Positions 46,089-53,158 of a DNA stretch of 64,000 nt are shown here, piece by piece. The DNA comes from Sipunculus nudus (taxonomy: Eukaryota > Annelida > Sipuncula > Golfingiida > Sipunculidae), in NCBI GenBank assembly GCA_026874595.1, contig CM049307.1, positions 33,088,862 to 33,152,861 of the forward strand, written 5' to 3'. The notes beneath the pieces are model-generated. The model made no database searches and was not told the DNA's origin. It was given only the letters and a program-made list of their open reading frames with translations. Each line of letters starts with the position of its first letter. Position 1 is the first letter of the stretch. Made by a program: the position numbers and the translations under genes.

Positions 46089-46091
46089 TAA

Positions 46092-46340
46092 GGGCCCTTT
46101 TCCATGATCGCGTTTCCGCGCGCGTTTCCGCGCGCGGAAAAATCGCCCTAGTGTTAACCATGTTTACCGTTTCCACGATCGCGTTTCGGCGCGCGGGTTA
46201 ATTCCGCGCGGAAAAATAAATTGCGCGATGCGCGATTTTTCCGCGCGCGTTTCCGCGCGCGGAAAAATCGCTCCAGTGTAAATCATGTATACCTTTTCCA
46301 TGATCGCTTTTCCGCGCGCGGAAATGTTGTTGTCGTCTGC
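46092..46340. repeat. Left TIR and subterminal CG-rich arrays of Harbinger
   Basis: Three loose units begin TTTCC(A/C)(T/C)GATCGC at about 46101, 46169 and 46287. Each is followed by one or more copies of TTTCCGCGCGCG and its complement. The same blocks occur inverted at 52755-52849. Such subterminal repeats usually bind the transposase or its Myb-like partner. Confidence 0.8.
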
Positions 46341-46355
46341 TTGTATAGCATCAAC

Positions 46356-48155
46356 ATGTCACAACAAACAGAGCTCCTTTTATATTTGATCCGACGAAAA
46401 CGTTTAAATGCGACACGACTTGTCATGGCCCAGCAGCAAAAGAGGAAACATAGGTTCTGGGTCCATGACATGTTAAAAAAGAGAGAAAATCATGGGGCCT
46501 ATTACCACTTGGTAAGGGAGCTGGCACTGGACAGCCAAAAACATCACCAGTATTTCAGGATGTCTGCTGAGAAGTTGGAGGAAATACTCGGGTTTGTTGG
46601 ACCAGATATCCAGAAAAGAACTCTTGTGCGAGACCCACTGGAAGCGAACCAGAAACTGGCAATATGTGTAAGGTAACGTACCCTTAATATATTGTAATAT
46701 AGGAACCTAAATGTAATACTACCTGTTTGCCTCCCTGCGGAGGGATATATACATATATATAGCCTGGAACTTCAAGTATTAATCATTTGATGAGATATAG
46801 GGATTCATTATTTTCAGTATCTAATAAGAGTATAAATCCTGTGACATCTTAAGAGTAACATCCCATAAGGTAACGTGCCCTTAATATATTGTCATAGGCT
46901 TTGGAACCGGGGGGGGGGGGGCGAGGGGGGCGCGAGGGGGGGGGGGTATATTATGATATTATTTCCTGTTGGAAATATAATACTCTACAGAGAAGCTGAG
47001 ACTCCCGGAACCTATTGGTCATCAAGACTGTTGCCTCTGGGGTGCTCACGCTGGTCAGGCAGATGATAAACTGGTTGTACTTCAAGTGTCGACTTAATCG
47101 CTCATGGCATTTTTGGCGGCATAGGTGGTAGTACCCGCACCTCCTCCCCCAATTTTGTCATTGACGTTCCTGTACTATATAAAAAAAATTACACTTGCTA
47201 TGCTAACAAAAAAACATGCATACATAAACTATATTCATAAAAAAGAGGGAGCAGGCAGGCAGTGTCAATGCTTCCTACACTGTCAACCATCGAAATCATG
47301 GGATATTAATTGATCATAGTGTTACTATAGTCAGGTCAGGGCCTCTGAGGCTGCCACTGCATGCTGAGAACCTGGGTCCTTGCACCCTGAAGTGTGAGAC
47401 AGTCCAGATCATGTAGGTTGGGCATCTTTGCTATTCATAAACTGTCTTGCTGGTCATTCACAGTCACATTTACTGTCTGAAATTGAAGCTTGAAAGACAT
47501 GTCTATAGTCAGTTTGTATAGTGTTTAAATGGCATCTAGCAAAAAGCAGAAGGTATCTGACTTCTTTGTAAAATCTCAAGATTCCACCTATGACCCAGTG
47601 AGGTATGTAAAATTATATTTTGTTCCTTTAAGTTTCTAAATAAATAAGCTATTAGTAAACTATAAGTTTTTAGCTCAGCTGACTGTAAGTCATCTGAGCT
47701 ATATAAGCAGCTTTGGCCTTATAGCTGTCATATGTTCTGCCACCAATTCCAGACGCTTGCAGTAACTCAGTAAAGCAAATCGGAACCTTTATATTTGATA
47801 ATTACAACTCAAACTTCAAGTAAGTTTGAAAATGTTATATATTCTTTGCCTATTTGTATCGTGCTTTATACCTCACACACCAATGGTGGAGTAAAATTAA
47901 AATCCCAGTATAAATATTATCAATTTGGCACACATGATTCTGTAAATTAAATATTTAATCATTTTTTGTGTGGTGCAGCATGTGATTAAAAATAGGAAAT
48001 TGGTAAAAATACTGCACTGAAAATGCATTTTTTATGTTTTATTTTTTCAAAATTTTCCAAACTGTGAGAGGGGGATACCCCCTCCCACACCCACCCCCTT
48101 TCGGGAGCTTATGCACAATATGCCCTATATTTCACTTTTAAAAAGCTCAAAAAAC

Positions 48156-48204
<49 letters not shown>

Positions 48205-48304
48205 CAAAGTGCGCCCCCCCCCCCCCCACTTTCAAAACTATTCCGTAGCCTATGATTGTAATATAGGAACCTAAATGTAATACTACCTGTTTGCCTCCCT
48301 GCGG

Positions 48305-48348
<44 letters not shown>

Positions 48349-50319
48349 GATTGAGATTCAGCCTGGAACTTCAACTATTATTCATTTGATGAGATATAGG
48401 ATTCATTATTTTCAGTATCTAATAAGAGTATAAATCCTGTGACATCTTAAGAATAACATCCCAGAGGTAGACTTATAAACTTGATGTATACATGACTGAT
48501 ATTTTAACGTTTTAAAATTACTTTTATCTAATTTTTATCATATTTTTAATGTCTCGAATGAATATATATATGGATCAACCATTGCCCTGCAGTACCCTCT
48601 GGCTACTTTTGACGTCATCATTTTGGAGAATTAGCTTATGAAGAATCGATTAGGTTTGGGTGTGGGTCTGGCTCATGATCCGGATAAAACCTAACATTAA
48701 TCAGCTTATTTTGTTTTATGATGAATCTGTTATTCAGTGTATGGATGGCTTCCTGCATGCATGAAGTAAAGACTGCAAAGGAAATTAATCTGTTTTATCA
48801 AGAGTATGAAAGGCTTCCTGCATGCAGGAATTCAAGACTGCAAAGGAACTGCGGCTTCCGTTTTGTTCAACATGATCATAGTGATGTACACCAGTAGTTG
48901 AGAGTGAGGGTACGGATGCTTGAGGGACCGGCACAGGTGGTTGCTGGGAGGAATTATGTGGAAAGGAGGGGTGCTGGTGGGTTTCTTCAGCGATCCTTCT
49001 GCTCTGCTCCAGTTGCATATATGTGTTCCATATATGGTCTTCCATGTACAGCTGGTATGACTTCGGGAAACTGGCCATTTTTTCTCCAATCATCATGTAA
49101 AAGCTACCAGCTTTCTTTGTGGCTGAAATTTCTCCCTCCAGGCGCTTTATTCTGTGTGTGTCCTCTTCATAATCATCCTCTATTCTCTCAATCAGTTGTT
49201 GCATTGTTGTTCTTTTTCTTTTCTGTTGTTTTCCTTTTTTGTCAGAGGAGCTGGTTGATAAACATGCCGTTAGCCTTTTGTGCGAACCTCCTTGTGTTCT
49301 GAAATGTAAGAATTAGAAAACTAATAAGTAAAGAAAAATTTGCTTTGTTTTAATATTTTCTCGATGGATCAAATAATTATTATAACTATTTCAGATTTCT
49401 GGCTACTGGAGAAAGCTATGTTTCCCTTGCTGCACAGTATAGGGTCGGGGTCACGACCATCAGTCGCTTGGTACCAGAAGTGTGCACTGCCATATGGAAC
49501 AAAATGGGAGAAGCTTTCATGAAGATGCCACAAACGGAGCATGAATGGCAAATTGTTGCTCAGCAGTTCAAGCAAAAGTGGGACTTCCCACACTGTGTGG
49601 GAGCAGTGGACGGTAAACATATTGTCATCAGATCTCCCAGTAACAGTGGTTCTATGTACTATAATTACAAGGGTACATTTTCAATCATGCTTTTAGCTCT
49701 TGTGGATGCGTGTGGCAGATTTCTATATGTCGACATCGGGGCATATGGCCGGCAGTCAGATTCTGGGGTGTTAATGAATAGCAGCCTTGGTAAAGCACTT
49801 GCACCCCCCAATGCCCTAAATATACCACGGGCCGACTCCATTGAAGGAGCAGAACATATCGGGCCTCTGCCTTACGTTGTTCTTGGGGACGAGGCCTTTC
49901 CTTTGCAGGAACATATCATGAGACCGTTCCCCAGGAGACAGTGTGACCTTAACCAGGATGCGTACAACTATCGGCACTGTCGGGCAAGGCGCATTGTGGA
50001 ATGCGCATTTGGCATTCTTGCCACGAGATGGCGTGTTTTCTACAGCAGGATGGCCATTTCTCCAGAAAACGTTAAAACTGTAGTGCAGGCAGCCGTCATA
50101 CTACACAACATGTTACAAGCTGAAACAAGCCCAGGACCTGAATATGAGGAGATGATGAAGGGTTACCAGCCTGATAAAGTCAAGGGATTTAAAGGTGTAC
50201 CCGGTTTCGGCACCAGAGGTTCCACAGTTGCTGTGGATGTAAGGAACAGATTCACTGCTTTGTTTAACGAGTTTCCCTTGCCTTGGCAAACAGCTTACAT
50301 ACAAAAAGGACTTTATTAA
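46356..50319 (+). CDS. PIF/Harbinger DDE transposase (HARBI1-like), 413 aa
   Basis: Exon 1 is 46356-46672 (donor GTAACG). Exon 2 is 49395-50319 (acceptor TTTCAG). The joint splits an Arg codon and gives LAICVRFLATGESYVSLAAQ, the usual motif at this place in the family. The N-terminal ~100 residues are basic and helical. A helix-turn-helix (SYVSLAAQYRVGVTTISRLV) follows, then the DDE nuclease fold with D178 (GAVDGKH), D271 (VLGDEAFPL) and E308 (RRIVECAFGILATRWRVF). Length is normal for the family and no catalytic residue is missing, so it may be active. The upstream ATG at 46221 is in frame but lies in the terminal repeat array, so 46356 is preferred. The 3' UTR runs antisense through exon 3 of the partner gene, to AATAAA at about 50457. 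Confidence 0.92.
46893..48254. mobile_element. TIR element nested in the transposase intron
   Basis: The left end CATAGGCTTTGGAA and the right end reversed CATAGGCTACGGAA are inverted repeats, flanked by ATTGT on both sides (46888-46892 and 48255-48259). At 1362 bases it splits the second unit of the ~190-base direct repeat. It contains a G run at the left, a C run at the right, a (TA)n tract, an AGCTCAGCTGAC hairpin (about 47672) and a short coding-like start at 47530. The superfamily is not determined. Confidence 0.7.
47530..47605 (+). other. Possible 25-codon mini-exon in the nested element
   Basis: ATG begins MASSKKQKVSDFFVKSQD and stays open to a GAG|GTATGT-type donor at about 47602. 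The KKxKVSDFF start resembles N-termini of zinc-finger or BED-type transposase-derived proteins. It may be a remnant of the element's own first exon. Nothing downstream could be joined to it. Confidence 0.3.
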
Positions 50320-50772
50320 GCTGCAGTCTGAATATGTATTTGACAAACTCACTCATCCCCGGGTCCAGTCAAGCTGGAGAGGTTGTCGTCCGACTCATCT
50401 GGCGGTGAATTGTCCTCAGGAGTCATCTGTACATTAAAGTTGGAAACCGTGCTGCAAATAAAATAAAAAAAATCATTTTATATTTTTATCAGTATGTTTA
50501 ATGGGGGGAAAATATGAAGAGGGATACAGTGTGTGTGTGAGGCTGTGTGCGTGTCCCATGCATGTCTGGTGTTATGATGCCGGTGCTTAATCCCTGTTGA
50601 TTGTTTATTTCGCCATCACCTTACTCTCACTATACATGTGGTTGTCACTGAAGGTGCGTTCTATTGTGCACGCTTTCTCCTGAAAAAGATAGAGCTCATA
50701 TATTCCGATACCGCCGTGACAACCTCCATGTCCGTTAATTTAGCCGGCACTCAAATTTGTCTAGCTATAACC

Positions 50773-50834
<62 letters not shown>

Positions 50835-51990
50835 CTGTGTGACACATCTGATATATATTCCAATAAAAAATCTTTTAAAAAATAAGGTATAATGTTTAAG
50901 TACATGTATATTTAAATATTATTCTCTAAATATCGGGGGGGATGATTTCATTGACCATTCCCGATTGCTAAAAAGTACCCCATTCTCTCTCTCCCCCCCC
51001 CCCCCCCCCCTCCTTATTGATGCCCCTGAGTTTTGCACTCAAAACTTTCATTGCATATTATAAACACTAGTGTACCTTCCTTCTGTAGAACATTGGGATA
51101 AAAATTGGAGGCGATCCCAAAAGGGACCCTTGTTCAAGTATGCGGCCTCTGAACCACTCCGCTGTAACTCTTTCAGTTTTTTCTTGATGGTGCTGAAATA
51201 ATCTTTAAGATTTTTCCATTTGGTCCTTGCCATTTCCCCTGAAAAAAAAGAAATAATAAACTTGTGGTTGTTTTAATCAGATCAGTACGTTGTTGTCTAC
51301 AACAGGAACCACAATCATGTGTGATACGAAGGAATATTTTTATATATAAATTATCATGATTGTTCAGACATGTTAAGCACAGAGGTCGCAAATCGAACTG
51401 AAGGATCAGGGGTGGGCAGTGTTTTAAATATACCCAAAATGTTAACTTGATATATATATTTGAATTTATTTTATTATTATAATCTCATATATACCTTTGA
51501 TATAATATAAATATGGTTAACCTTTACTCGCCATGTAAACTAGTCTTCCCATATAAATTGTAAATTGTGAACAGGAAAATTGGAGGAATCTATTGAGAAA
51601 TAGGCCTCTATAGACCTGTTATAGGACACTATCCCAAATGCACAGCTCATATGCAACTATACATGCATGGGAAGATACAGAGACTAACTTAAGTTGACTA
51701 AAACCGAACATTTTTACATGATGATATATTTGTTAAATGATTAATAAATATGAAGCTTTTCTCAGTCGGTCCATGACAACAAATTAATGAATGAAGATGA
51801 AGTATGCATCTTTTAAAAATGAAGGGGGGGGGGGGGGGGGTGATGGGGTATTTGGGGCACATCCGGGGGGGGGGGGCAATAATAAAAAGGAAAAACATAA
51901 AGAGTAACAGTATTCCTAAGTACAGTTAGTTTTTTCTCCTGTACAGGACTGTAATGGACCAACCCCTCCCCAAATCAACCCCATGAGTGC

Positions 51991-52045
<55 letters not shown>

Positions 52046-52705
52046 CATGTATGTCTATTATTGCCCCCCTCAACCCCCATGAACATTTCGCTACGCCGCC
52101 AATGCATTTTGTATTGCCCCCCCCCCCCCCCTTTCGCGCGGACCAGATGTTATTTTTGTTTGTGAACGTAGGGCTACCGATGATGCGATAGACCTACAAG
52201 TTATATGTTAGACTTTGGGGATTATGATGAACTTTTCATTGTGTAGCTTTAATATTTTATTAATATTTTTTTAATAGTAATCTATGCATGCAAGATATAC
52301 AATATAGCCCAACCTTATACAAGTTATAATTTCTTATAGGCCTAAGCCCTACTATACGGTGCGAATTTTGTTGACTTTAGGCTTATTTTAGTTTGTATAG
52401 GCCTATTTATTATGAGGCCTATGCCTATTAATTATACTTTACTGTTTTAAATAAACTTTGGACAGTAGCCTATTGACTATTGTAGTATTTTCTTATTGAC
52501 AGTAATACCAGTAGGCCTACTTACAATCCAGCCCCTCCACGTCCATTTCTCTGGCTATCCTTGTCCAGGTTTTTTGTGCCAGGACCTTGTTTCTATGATC
52601 CTTCATTTTAGGATCATATAGCCATGGATTCCTCTCCACCAAGTCAATCAGACTTTCCTGCTGAGCCTGTGTCAGCTTCACGACCTGTTTTATTTGGCTT
52701 GTCAT
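48785..52705 (-). CDS. Harbinger MADF/Myb-like partner protein, 318 aa
   Basis: Four exons on the minus strand: 52705-52525 (donor GTAAGT), 51238-51076 (donor GTACAC), 50451-50353 (donor GTGAGT) and 49298-48785 (stop). All phases agree and the joined frame is open. Exons 1-2 form a MADF domain: LIDLVERNPWLYD, KTWTRIAREM, and across the joint WEMARTKWKNLKDYF, with the three spaced Trp/aromatic positions of MADF/Myb DNA-binding folds. Exon 3 is acidic (PPDESDDN). Exon 4 has a KKGKQQKRKRT nuclear signal, a helical IERIEDDYEEDTHRIKRLEG stretch and a Gln/Pro/Ser-rich tail. In zebrafish and plant systems the partner brings transposase to the nucleus and the element ends. Exon 4 lies in the transposase intron, and the transposase's exon 2 lies in intron 3 of this gene. 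Confidence 0.88.
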
Positions 52706-52754
52706 GTTGCTGGAGGACGGGGAATCCCTGGTTAAAACACGTCATGCAAGGGGG

Positions 52755-52849
52755 ATTCCGCGTTTCCGCGCGCGTTTCTTCTCACATGGAAAAGCTGAAT
52801 TCCGCGCGTTTTTTTCCGCGCGCGGAAACGCGATCATGGAAAAGGGGCC
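52755..52849. repeat. Right TIR and subterminal CG-rich repeats of Harbinger
   Basis: TTCCGCGTTTCCGCGCGCG and its complement precede the end GGAAACGCGATCATGGAAAA followed by GGGGCC. These mirror the blocks at the left end, but the right array is shorter. Confidence 0.85.
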
Positions 52850-53158
52850 TAACACTGAGAATATTTGGTGGAACTAATAAAAAAATGAAAATGTATTATC
52901 CAAAGTTCATCTCCACCAAATTTGGTTCTTTTATCACAATCTGAACAATTCTTCTGTATTTTGCCGTTAACCGCTGCACTATAGGCATTTAGCAACTTAT
53001 GACGAGTCATCTAGTTTAAAGCAGGTTACTTGTAAGATGGTAACATTGCTTGCTTTGCTTACCGGACAGCGTTTACAAACTTTGCGAATGTTAGATATTA
53101 ATGATATATTGTTTCATGAAAGTTCATGTATATTAAAAGTAGGGGCTTTGCTAACAAG

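What the first reader, a model, noticed from the sequence alone, without database searches (positions are those of the whole stretch)
46356..52705. Two Harbinger genes interlocked: each has an exon inside the other's intron
Transposase exon 2 (49395-50319) lies wholly within intron 3 of the opposing MADF gene (49299-50352), with 96 bases to spare on one side and 33 on the other. MADF exon 4 (48785-49298) lies within the transposase intron (46673-49394). Splice phases of both genes agree and both frames are open. The transposase 3' UTR must run antisense through MADF exon 3. Convergent two-gene layout is known for Harbinger; this degree of interdigitation is not something I know as a described arrangement. 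It could couple the dosage of the two proteins through antisense pairing or transcriptional collision.
Basis: partly seen in the sequence, partly recalled or inferred. Interest (0 to 1): 0.75.

Follow-up and report, generated by a model that had tools for sequence, protein, structure and literature searches.

The report
Jumping gene with interlocked gene pair
A jumping gene in an unnamed eukaryote carries its two genes on opposite DNA strands threaded through each other, each with an exon inside the other's intron, and distant relatives in the same genome keep this layout, so it looks like an old, inherited architecture and not an accident of one copy.

Summary
The window has a complete PIF/Harbinger DNA transposon (46092-52849, TAA target duplications). 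The transposase gene (T, +) has two exons; the MADF gene (M, -) has four. M exon 4 lies in the T intron and T exon 2 lies in M intron 3. Splice dinucleotides and phases fit, and all 8 splice sites recur in two near-identical copies. The new result is depth: the same order (T1, M4 reversed, T2, then M exons) occurs in relatives down to about 50% transposase identity, forming one clade (98/96). The neighbouring family has a T intron at the same site but ends its MADF gene before the transposase, so it is convergent; seven more distant loci have a one-exon transposase. The interlock is best read as derived once from a convergent ancestor. Against L019, dN/dS is low in T2 and M2. In 4 of 4 models the T 3' UTR must cross M exon 3 antisense. 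No RNA data were available: splicing, antisense pairing and dosage coupling are unproven, and the M3-M4 join rests on phase and conservation. Best explanation: an ordinary two-protein Harbinger whose genes became interlocked by a local rearrangement and cannot easily be untangled. Boldest reading: the lock stops one-gene deletion derivatives from parasitising the element.

The parts
46089..46091 (.). target site duplication TAA, left
   Evidence: the L017 copy aligns from here
46092..46123 (+). left terminal inverted repeat, GGGCCCTTTTCCATGATCGCGTTTCCGCGCGC
46356..46672 (+). transposase exon 1 (T1)
   Evidence: tblastn in relatives
46673..49394 (+). transposase intron, GTAACG...TTTCAG; contains MADF exon 4 on the other strand
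48785..49298 (-). MADF gene exon 4 (M4): basic stretch, charged stretch and BESS-like stretch, ends with the stop
   Evidence: BESS match weak
49299..50352 (-). MADF gene intron 3, GTGAGT...TTTCAG; contains transposase exon 2 on the other strand
49395..50319 (+). transposase exon 2 (T2), DDE_Tnp_4 domain, stop
   Evidence: Pfam PF13359 E 8.7e-33 on the whole protein
50353..50451 (-). MADF gene exon 3 (M3), acidic linker beginning S-T-V-S-N; lies antisense to the inferred transposase 3' UTR
50433..50467 (+). candidate transposase polyadenylation signals ATTAAA (+114) and AATAAA (+138, +143)
51076..51238 (-). MADF gene exon 2 (M2), second half of the MADF domain
52525..52705 (-). MADF gene exon 1 (M1), start codon and first half of the MADF domain
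   Evidence: PF10545 E 1.5e-14 on the whole protein
52818..52849 (-). right terminal inverted repeat, GGCCCCTTTTCCATGATCGCGTTTCCGCGCGC
52850..52852 (.). target site duplication TAA, right

Best explanation
This is an autonomous-looking PIF/Harbinger transposon whose two genes are physically interlocked. Both primary transcripts run inward from the two ends, overlap for about 1.7-1.9 kb in the middle, and are spliced independently, each discarding the other gene's exon as part of its own intron. T encodes the DDE transposase and M the MADF DNA-binding partner. The layout arose once: a convergent ancestor with a short T intron and an M gene ending downstream of T underwent a local rearrangement that put the last M exon into the T intron. 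A tandem duplication of the T2-M4 block with complementary loss of one copy of each would do it in small steps. Since then it has been inherited by about seven lineages in this genome (two of them seen only in part), mainly because it cannot be untangled by deletion. Shown: gene models, conservation of order, one clade, a convergent neighbour family, purifying selection on T2 and M2. Inferred: splicing in vivo, the direction and route of the rearrangement, absence of a regulatory role.
For: Window models in frame with canonical splice sites; all 8 splice sites kept in both near-identical copies L017 and L018. Same order in L019, L052, L053, L054, L055, L060 and, less complete, L020, L059, L061, L021. 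M3/M4 phase 2 in the four models read base by base: window, L019, L052, L054. One clade 98/96, 99% of 200 bootstrap trees. Neighbour family L056/L057: homologous T intron of about 300 bases (AG|A); in L056 M2 to the BESS end is one frame ending at 2798 while T ends at 2473. T1 and T2 in one frame in 7 more distant loci. Window against L019: dN/dS 0.077 for T2, 0.094 for M2; M4 dN 0.42 with synonymous sites saturated. TIR and TSD found for the window, L017, L052, L054, L060, L056, L057.
Against: No RNA evidence. Homology of M4 to the C-terminal BESS part of the neighbour family is weak (hhalign P 0.043, probability 1.2%; Pfam BESS E 0.043 in 1 of 5 M4 sequences, below its cut-off), and the presumed C-terminal frame of outgroup L058 has no BESS match, so the M3-M4 join rests on splice phase and conservation. 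L018 has a frameshift in M4, L017 a stop in M2, L060 no clear M3 donor, L053 and L054 stops in T2. M4 was not found in L035, which falls inside the clade. L060 and L061 have long branches, so their place is less sure. The M3/M4 intron is absent in L056, so intron history is unsettled. The layout of 11 unlabelled tree rows (L035 among them) and of 109 further T2 matches was not established. The tandem-duplication route is untested.
Confidence: 0.75

Rival explanations
1. The interlock is a regulatory device: the antisense 3' UTR over M3, or collision of the two polymerases, limits and balances the two proteins, a built-in brake on transposition.
For: In 4 of 4 models the first possible T polyadenylation signal lies inside or beyond M3, so the mature mRNAs should share about 81-156 complementary bases, the length of M3. 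T stop to M3 donor is short in these four: 33 (window), 11 (L052), 27 (L019), about 16 (L054) bases. Convergent and nested antiparallel overlaps were enriched among overlapping pairs conserved between human and mouse (PMC2330155, passages).
Against: In L055 the gap is about 190 bases (by count on the printed sequence). M3 length and sequence vary between lineages, with little but the S-T-V/E-S-N start shared. No RNA or small-RNA data. Persistence needs no benefit.
Confidence: 0.13
2. M4 is not an exon of the MADF gene but a separate small antisense gene or ORF inside the T intron; the MADF gene ends in or just after exon 3.
For: The window M3 frame meets a stop just beyond its donor; the M4 exons hold internal Met codons; homology of M4 to the BESS part of the neighbour family is weak.
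Against: M3 donor and M4 acceptor phases agree in the four models read base by base, and residues at the very start of M4, before any Met, are shared: QG in window and L019, RS in L053 and L060. L056 has the MADF end, an acidic linker, a basic stretch and BESS in one frame, the same order.
Confidence: 0.1
3. Anti-cheater lock: interlocked exons make it nearly impossible for a deletion to leave one working gene alone, so one-gene derivatives that exploit the partner's protein cannot arise. The layout is then favoured between element lineages.
For: One-gene variants are common in another Harbinger: 2263 intact transposase-only and 452 intact DNA-binding-only copies in one sea krait (PMC8437027, passages). 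In the interlocked layout a deletion removing a whole gene also removes an exon of the other (follows from the map).
Against: No count of one-gene copies in convergent and interlocked families was made here. Non-coding derivatives seem able to arise: the left end has 59 matches in the genome.
Confidence: 0.15
4. Assembly error or chance open frames.
For: A 175-codon antisense frame is reached by 4 of 1000 Markov sequences.
Against: Three near-identical copies on three chromosomes and several diverged ones share the order; low dN/dS against L019.
Confidence: 0.01

Closest known systems
PIF/Harbinger DNA transposons with a MADF/Myb-like second gene
   Same: DDE_Tnp_4 transposase, MADF protein, TIRs, TWA target duplication
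   Different: The passages read on this superfamily speak of two genes or ORFs and do not describe interlocked exons (PMC9710019 section 3 and passages, PMC4482050 passages)
Convergent neighbour family in the same genome (L056/L057)
   Same: Transposase intron at the same site; M on the opposite strand; TIR and TWA duplication
   Different: In L056 M2 to BESS is one frame ending before the transposase stop: convergent, not interlocked
Convergent two-gene transposons of the RAG-like kind
   Same: Two convergent genes between TIRs (PMC7204232, passages)
   Different: Tail to tail; no interlocking in the passages read
Nested and embedded overlapping animal genes
   Same: Antiparallel genes with exons in introns (PMC2330155, passages)
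   Different: Nested and embedded classes are one-way; here each gene holds an exon of the other. Mutually interleaved host gene pairs are known to me from recall only; the paper I looked for (PMC151185) is not held

Membership tests
PIF/Harbinger | DDE transposase of the DDE_Tnp_4 kind | tested here: met
   PF13359 E 8.7e-33, 113.6 bits against a cut-off of 24.8
PIF/Harbinger | second gene for a Myb/SANT/MADF protein | tested here: met
   PF10545 E 1.5e-14, 54.6 bits against a cut-off of 22
PIF/Harbinger | TWA target site duplication and terminal inverted repeats | tested here: met
   TAA on both sides; 31 of 32 TIR bases match by eye; script found pairs in 8 of 12 loci tried, L053's being doubtful
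PIF/Harbinger | both proteins needed for transposition | not testable with these tools
   Indicated by studies of rice and zebrafish members (PMC9710019 section 3)
MADF-BESS protein | C-terminal BESS motif | tested here: inconclusive
   No BESS match for window M or M4; L053 M4 E 0.043 alone and 0.12 in a joined protein, below cut-off; L056 E 2.5e-6 and L057 E 3.1e-7, above it
Mutually interleaved gene pair | each gene has a coding exon in an intron of the other | tested here: met
   From the sequence and gene models; not confirmed by RNA

The most novel reading that the evidence does not exclude
Interlocking is a selected genetic lock: by threading two jointly required genes through each other, this transposon lineage makes its two-protein machinery indivisible, so one-gene cheaters and single-gene domestication are blocked, while the forced antisense overlap adds a brake on its own activity.
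Probability: 0.17. Interest if true: 0.8.

Novelty: new variant of a known kind. Interest (0 to 1): 0.62.

Why it matters
It is a two-gene transposon whose genes cannot be separated by deletion, kept across lineages that share only about half of their transposase residues. With a convergent neighbour family in the same genome it offers a natural comparison: whether gene layout affects the rise of one-gene parasites, silencing by antisense RNA, or domestication of one partner. It also matters for annotation: gene predictors that forbid overlapping opposite-strand genes would split or drop one of the two.

Tried and rejected
Viral contigs scanned with T2: 6 stretches matched a pattern, none encodes a relative. 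The bacterial genome contigs and the phage and plasmid collections were not searched. TIR search by script over 12 loci found no pair for L018, L055, L058 or L020; by eye L018 has both ends but TTA on one side and TAA on the other. The pair the script gave for L053 belongs to ends of the L052 type; L053's own left end is AGCTACGTTTCCAT at 2525. BESS homology of M4 was tried with Pfam and hhalign and left inconclusive. Near-identical copies were useless for dN/dS (0 to 3 changes per class per gene); L020 shows relaxed values (T 0.62, M 0.54), as for a dead copy; M1 and M3 of L019 were not in that comparison. A 600-base gap between T1 and T2 in L051 shows no BESS-like frame by eye. L035 lies in the clade and has M2 and an M3-like frame, but no M4 was found; it was left unlabelled in the trees. 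Eight loci (L001-L008, found by the DDE_Tnp_4 search) gave no T2 match and were dropped before the trees; L019 was dropped from the second tree as identical to L031. One search looked in wrong files and found nothing; one search repeated it. Papers: ten searches used; no title or abstract start in their lists names an interlocked Harbinger, but Repbase and most subscription journals are not covered.

Full report
The window lies in an unnamed 1.43-Gb eukaryotic assembly (G000, contig C2). T: 46356-46672 and 49395-50319, 413 aa; of five donor-acceptor combinations only the reported one is in frame with one stop. M: 52705-52525, 51238-51076, 50451-50353, 49298-48785, 318 aa, all introns GT-AG with matching phases. 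Pfam gives DDE_Tnp_4 (8.7e-33) for T and MADF (1.5e-14) for M. TAA duplications at 46089-46091 and 52850-52852 bound near-perfect terminal repeats, so this is a PIF/Harbinger element of about 6.76 kb with both genes open.

M exon 4 lies inside the T intron, and T exon 2 lies inside M intron 3 with 96 bases on one side and 33 on the other. Two copies on other chromosomes align end to end at 97-98% (L017, L018) and keep all 8 splice sites (4 junctions). They are not intact throughout: L017 has a stop in M2 and L018 a frameshift in M4.

The own-genome search with T2 gave 139 matches, a lower bound (129 of 543 candidates scored). I looked for T1 in the best 30 loci with short flanks and examined 15 loci with wider ones (L017-L021, L052-L061). 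Apart from the two that brought in L060 and L061 (and L021), the remaining matches were not examined. The order T1, M4 on the other strand, T2, then M exons on the other strand is seen in the window, L017, L018, L019 (65% T2 identity; its M1), L052 (58%; M4 about 20%), L053 and L054 (about 50%), L055 (61%; M4 weak, no M1 found) and L060 (T2 pieces at 51% and 40%). Partial cases that fit: L020 (no M2), L059 (no T1), L061 (no M1-M3), L021 (only M4 and T2). In the models read base by base, M3 begins after its acceptor with S-T-V/E-S-N (window, L019, L052, L054) and M3 to M4 is phase 2 in all four. L054 is a compact element of about 3.7 kb with TAA duplications, and its T intron is only about 900 bases with M4 inside it.

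On the T2 tree with 32 rows, the 12 rows labelled interlocked form one side of a branch (98/96; 99% of 200 bootstrap trees); L035, unlabelled because no M4 was found, falls inside (an earlier tree of 31 rows gave 97/94). Eleven rows bear no label, and two labelled rows, L060 and L061, have long branches. The neighbouring family L032/L033 (wider: L056/L057) has the T intron at the same codon (AG|A) but only about 300 bases long with no M exon found in it. In L056 one M frame runs from the MADF end through an acidic linker and a basic stretch to a BESS motif (2.5e-6) and ends at 2798, while T ends at 2473: convergent and separate. In L057 that frame is broken. Seven more distant loci have T1 and T2 in one frame; in one, L058 (the wider L036), the MADF exon lies on the opposite strand downstream. 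The simplest history is a convergent ancestor, then a T intron, then one event that interlocked the genes. The root is assumed to lie on the outgroup side; the tree alone does not prove the direction.

Selection. Window against L019: T2 dN/dS 0.077, T1 0.18 (38 codons), M2 0.094; M4 dN 0.42 with synonymous change saturated; M1 and M3 not compared. Window against the dead-looking L020: T 0.62, M 0.54. Comparisons with L017 and L018 have too few changes (all). Both genes have been kept as proteins over a long time; for M4 this rests on dN well below a saturated dS.

Antisense overlap. After the T stop the first AWTAAA is at +114 in the window (inside M3; next +138), +561 in L052, +174 in L019 and about +208 in L054, M3 starting within about 35 bases of the stop in these four; so the T 3' UTR should cross M3. 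For L054 the script's stop position was three bases short (it printed GAG, the TGA follows), and I correct for that here; L054's T frame also holds an internal stop. In L055 the gap to M3 is about 190 bases. In the window the AATAAA pair also lies in the pyrimidine tract of the M3 acceptor when read on the other strand. Whether any of this matters cannot be told without RNA.

The weak point is the M3-M4 join. M4 has a BESS-like stretch by eye, but Pfam sees it in only 1 of 5 M4 sequences at 0.043, below its cut-off, and hhalign to L056 gives P 0.043, aligned at L056's BESS. The presumed C-terminal frame of L058 has no BESS match. Phase agreement, shared residues at the very start of M4 and the same order of features in L056 favour the join; a cDNA would settle it.

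Mechanism. Both proteins are reported to be required for transposition in rice and zebrafish members (PMC9710019, section 3). A tandem duplication of the T2-M4 block followed by complementary loss would interlock the genes without ever losing a function; short tandem duplications are visible in this element (T donor region; M4 3' end). This route is inference. Once interlocked, no single deletion restores the convergent layout, so persistence needs no selection. A selective idea remains open: in sea kraits a Harbinger whose gene layout the passages do not state has many one-gene copies (2263 and 452 in one species; PMC8437027, passages), which an interlocked element could hardly produce.

Literature. 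Ten searches listed no title or abstract start naming an interlocked Harbinger. The passages read in PMC4482050 and PMC9710019 do not describe such a layout. Repbase Reports, where exon coordinates of such elements may stand, was not available, so novelty is provisional.

Noticed in passing
window 46893-48254: An insertion inside the transposase intron with its own short inverted ends (CATAGGCT..GGAA) flanked by ATTGT on both sides; looks like a nested small transposon.
   Followed up: partly
window 46671-46866 and 46867-46892 plus 48255-48466: The exon 1 donor region appears tandemly duplicated within the intron, the second copy being split by the nested insertion (by eye; second blastn matches).
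   Followed up: no
window 48728-48785: The last stretch of MADF exon 4 is repeated just downstream of its stop (by eye; second tblastn match in L017 and L018).
   Followed up: no
G000, many contigs: The left end (46089-46340) has 59 matches, 41 of them long (three near-identical copies, L020 and others at 72-85% identity), a lower bound since 40 of 285 candidates were scored; more than the coding copies found, so probably short non-coding derivatives.
   Followed up: no
L053 2155, 6261, 6617: L053 sits among ends of the L052 type (GGGTGCTTTTCCAT), suggesting small derivatives of one interlocked family inserted in and around another.
   Followed up: partly
L059 5210-7811: Open frames resembling a non-LTR reverse transcriptase lie beyond M3 of a broken interlocked copy; recognised by eye only.
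   Followed up: no
G000: At least 150 DDE_Tnp_4 matches (150 of 701 candidates scored), in several distinct Harbinger families.
   Followed up: partly
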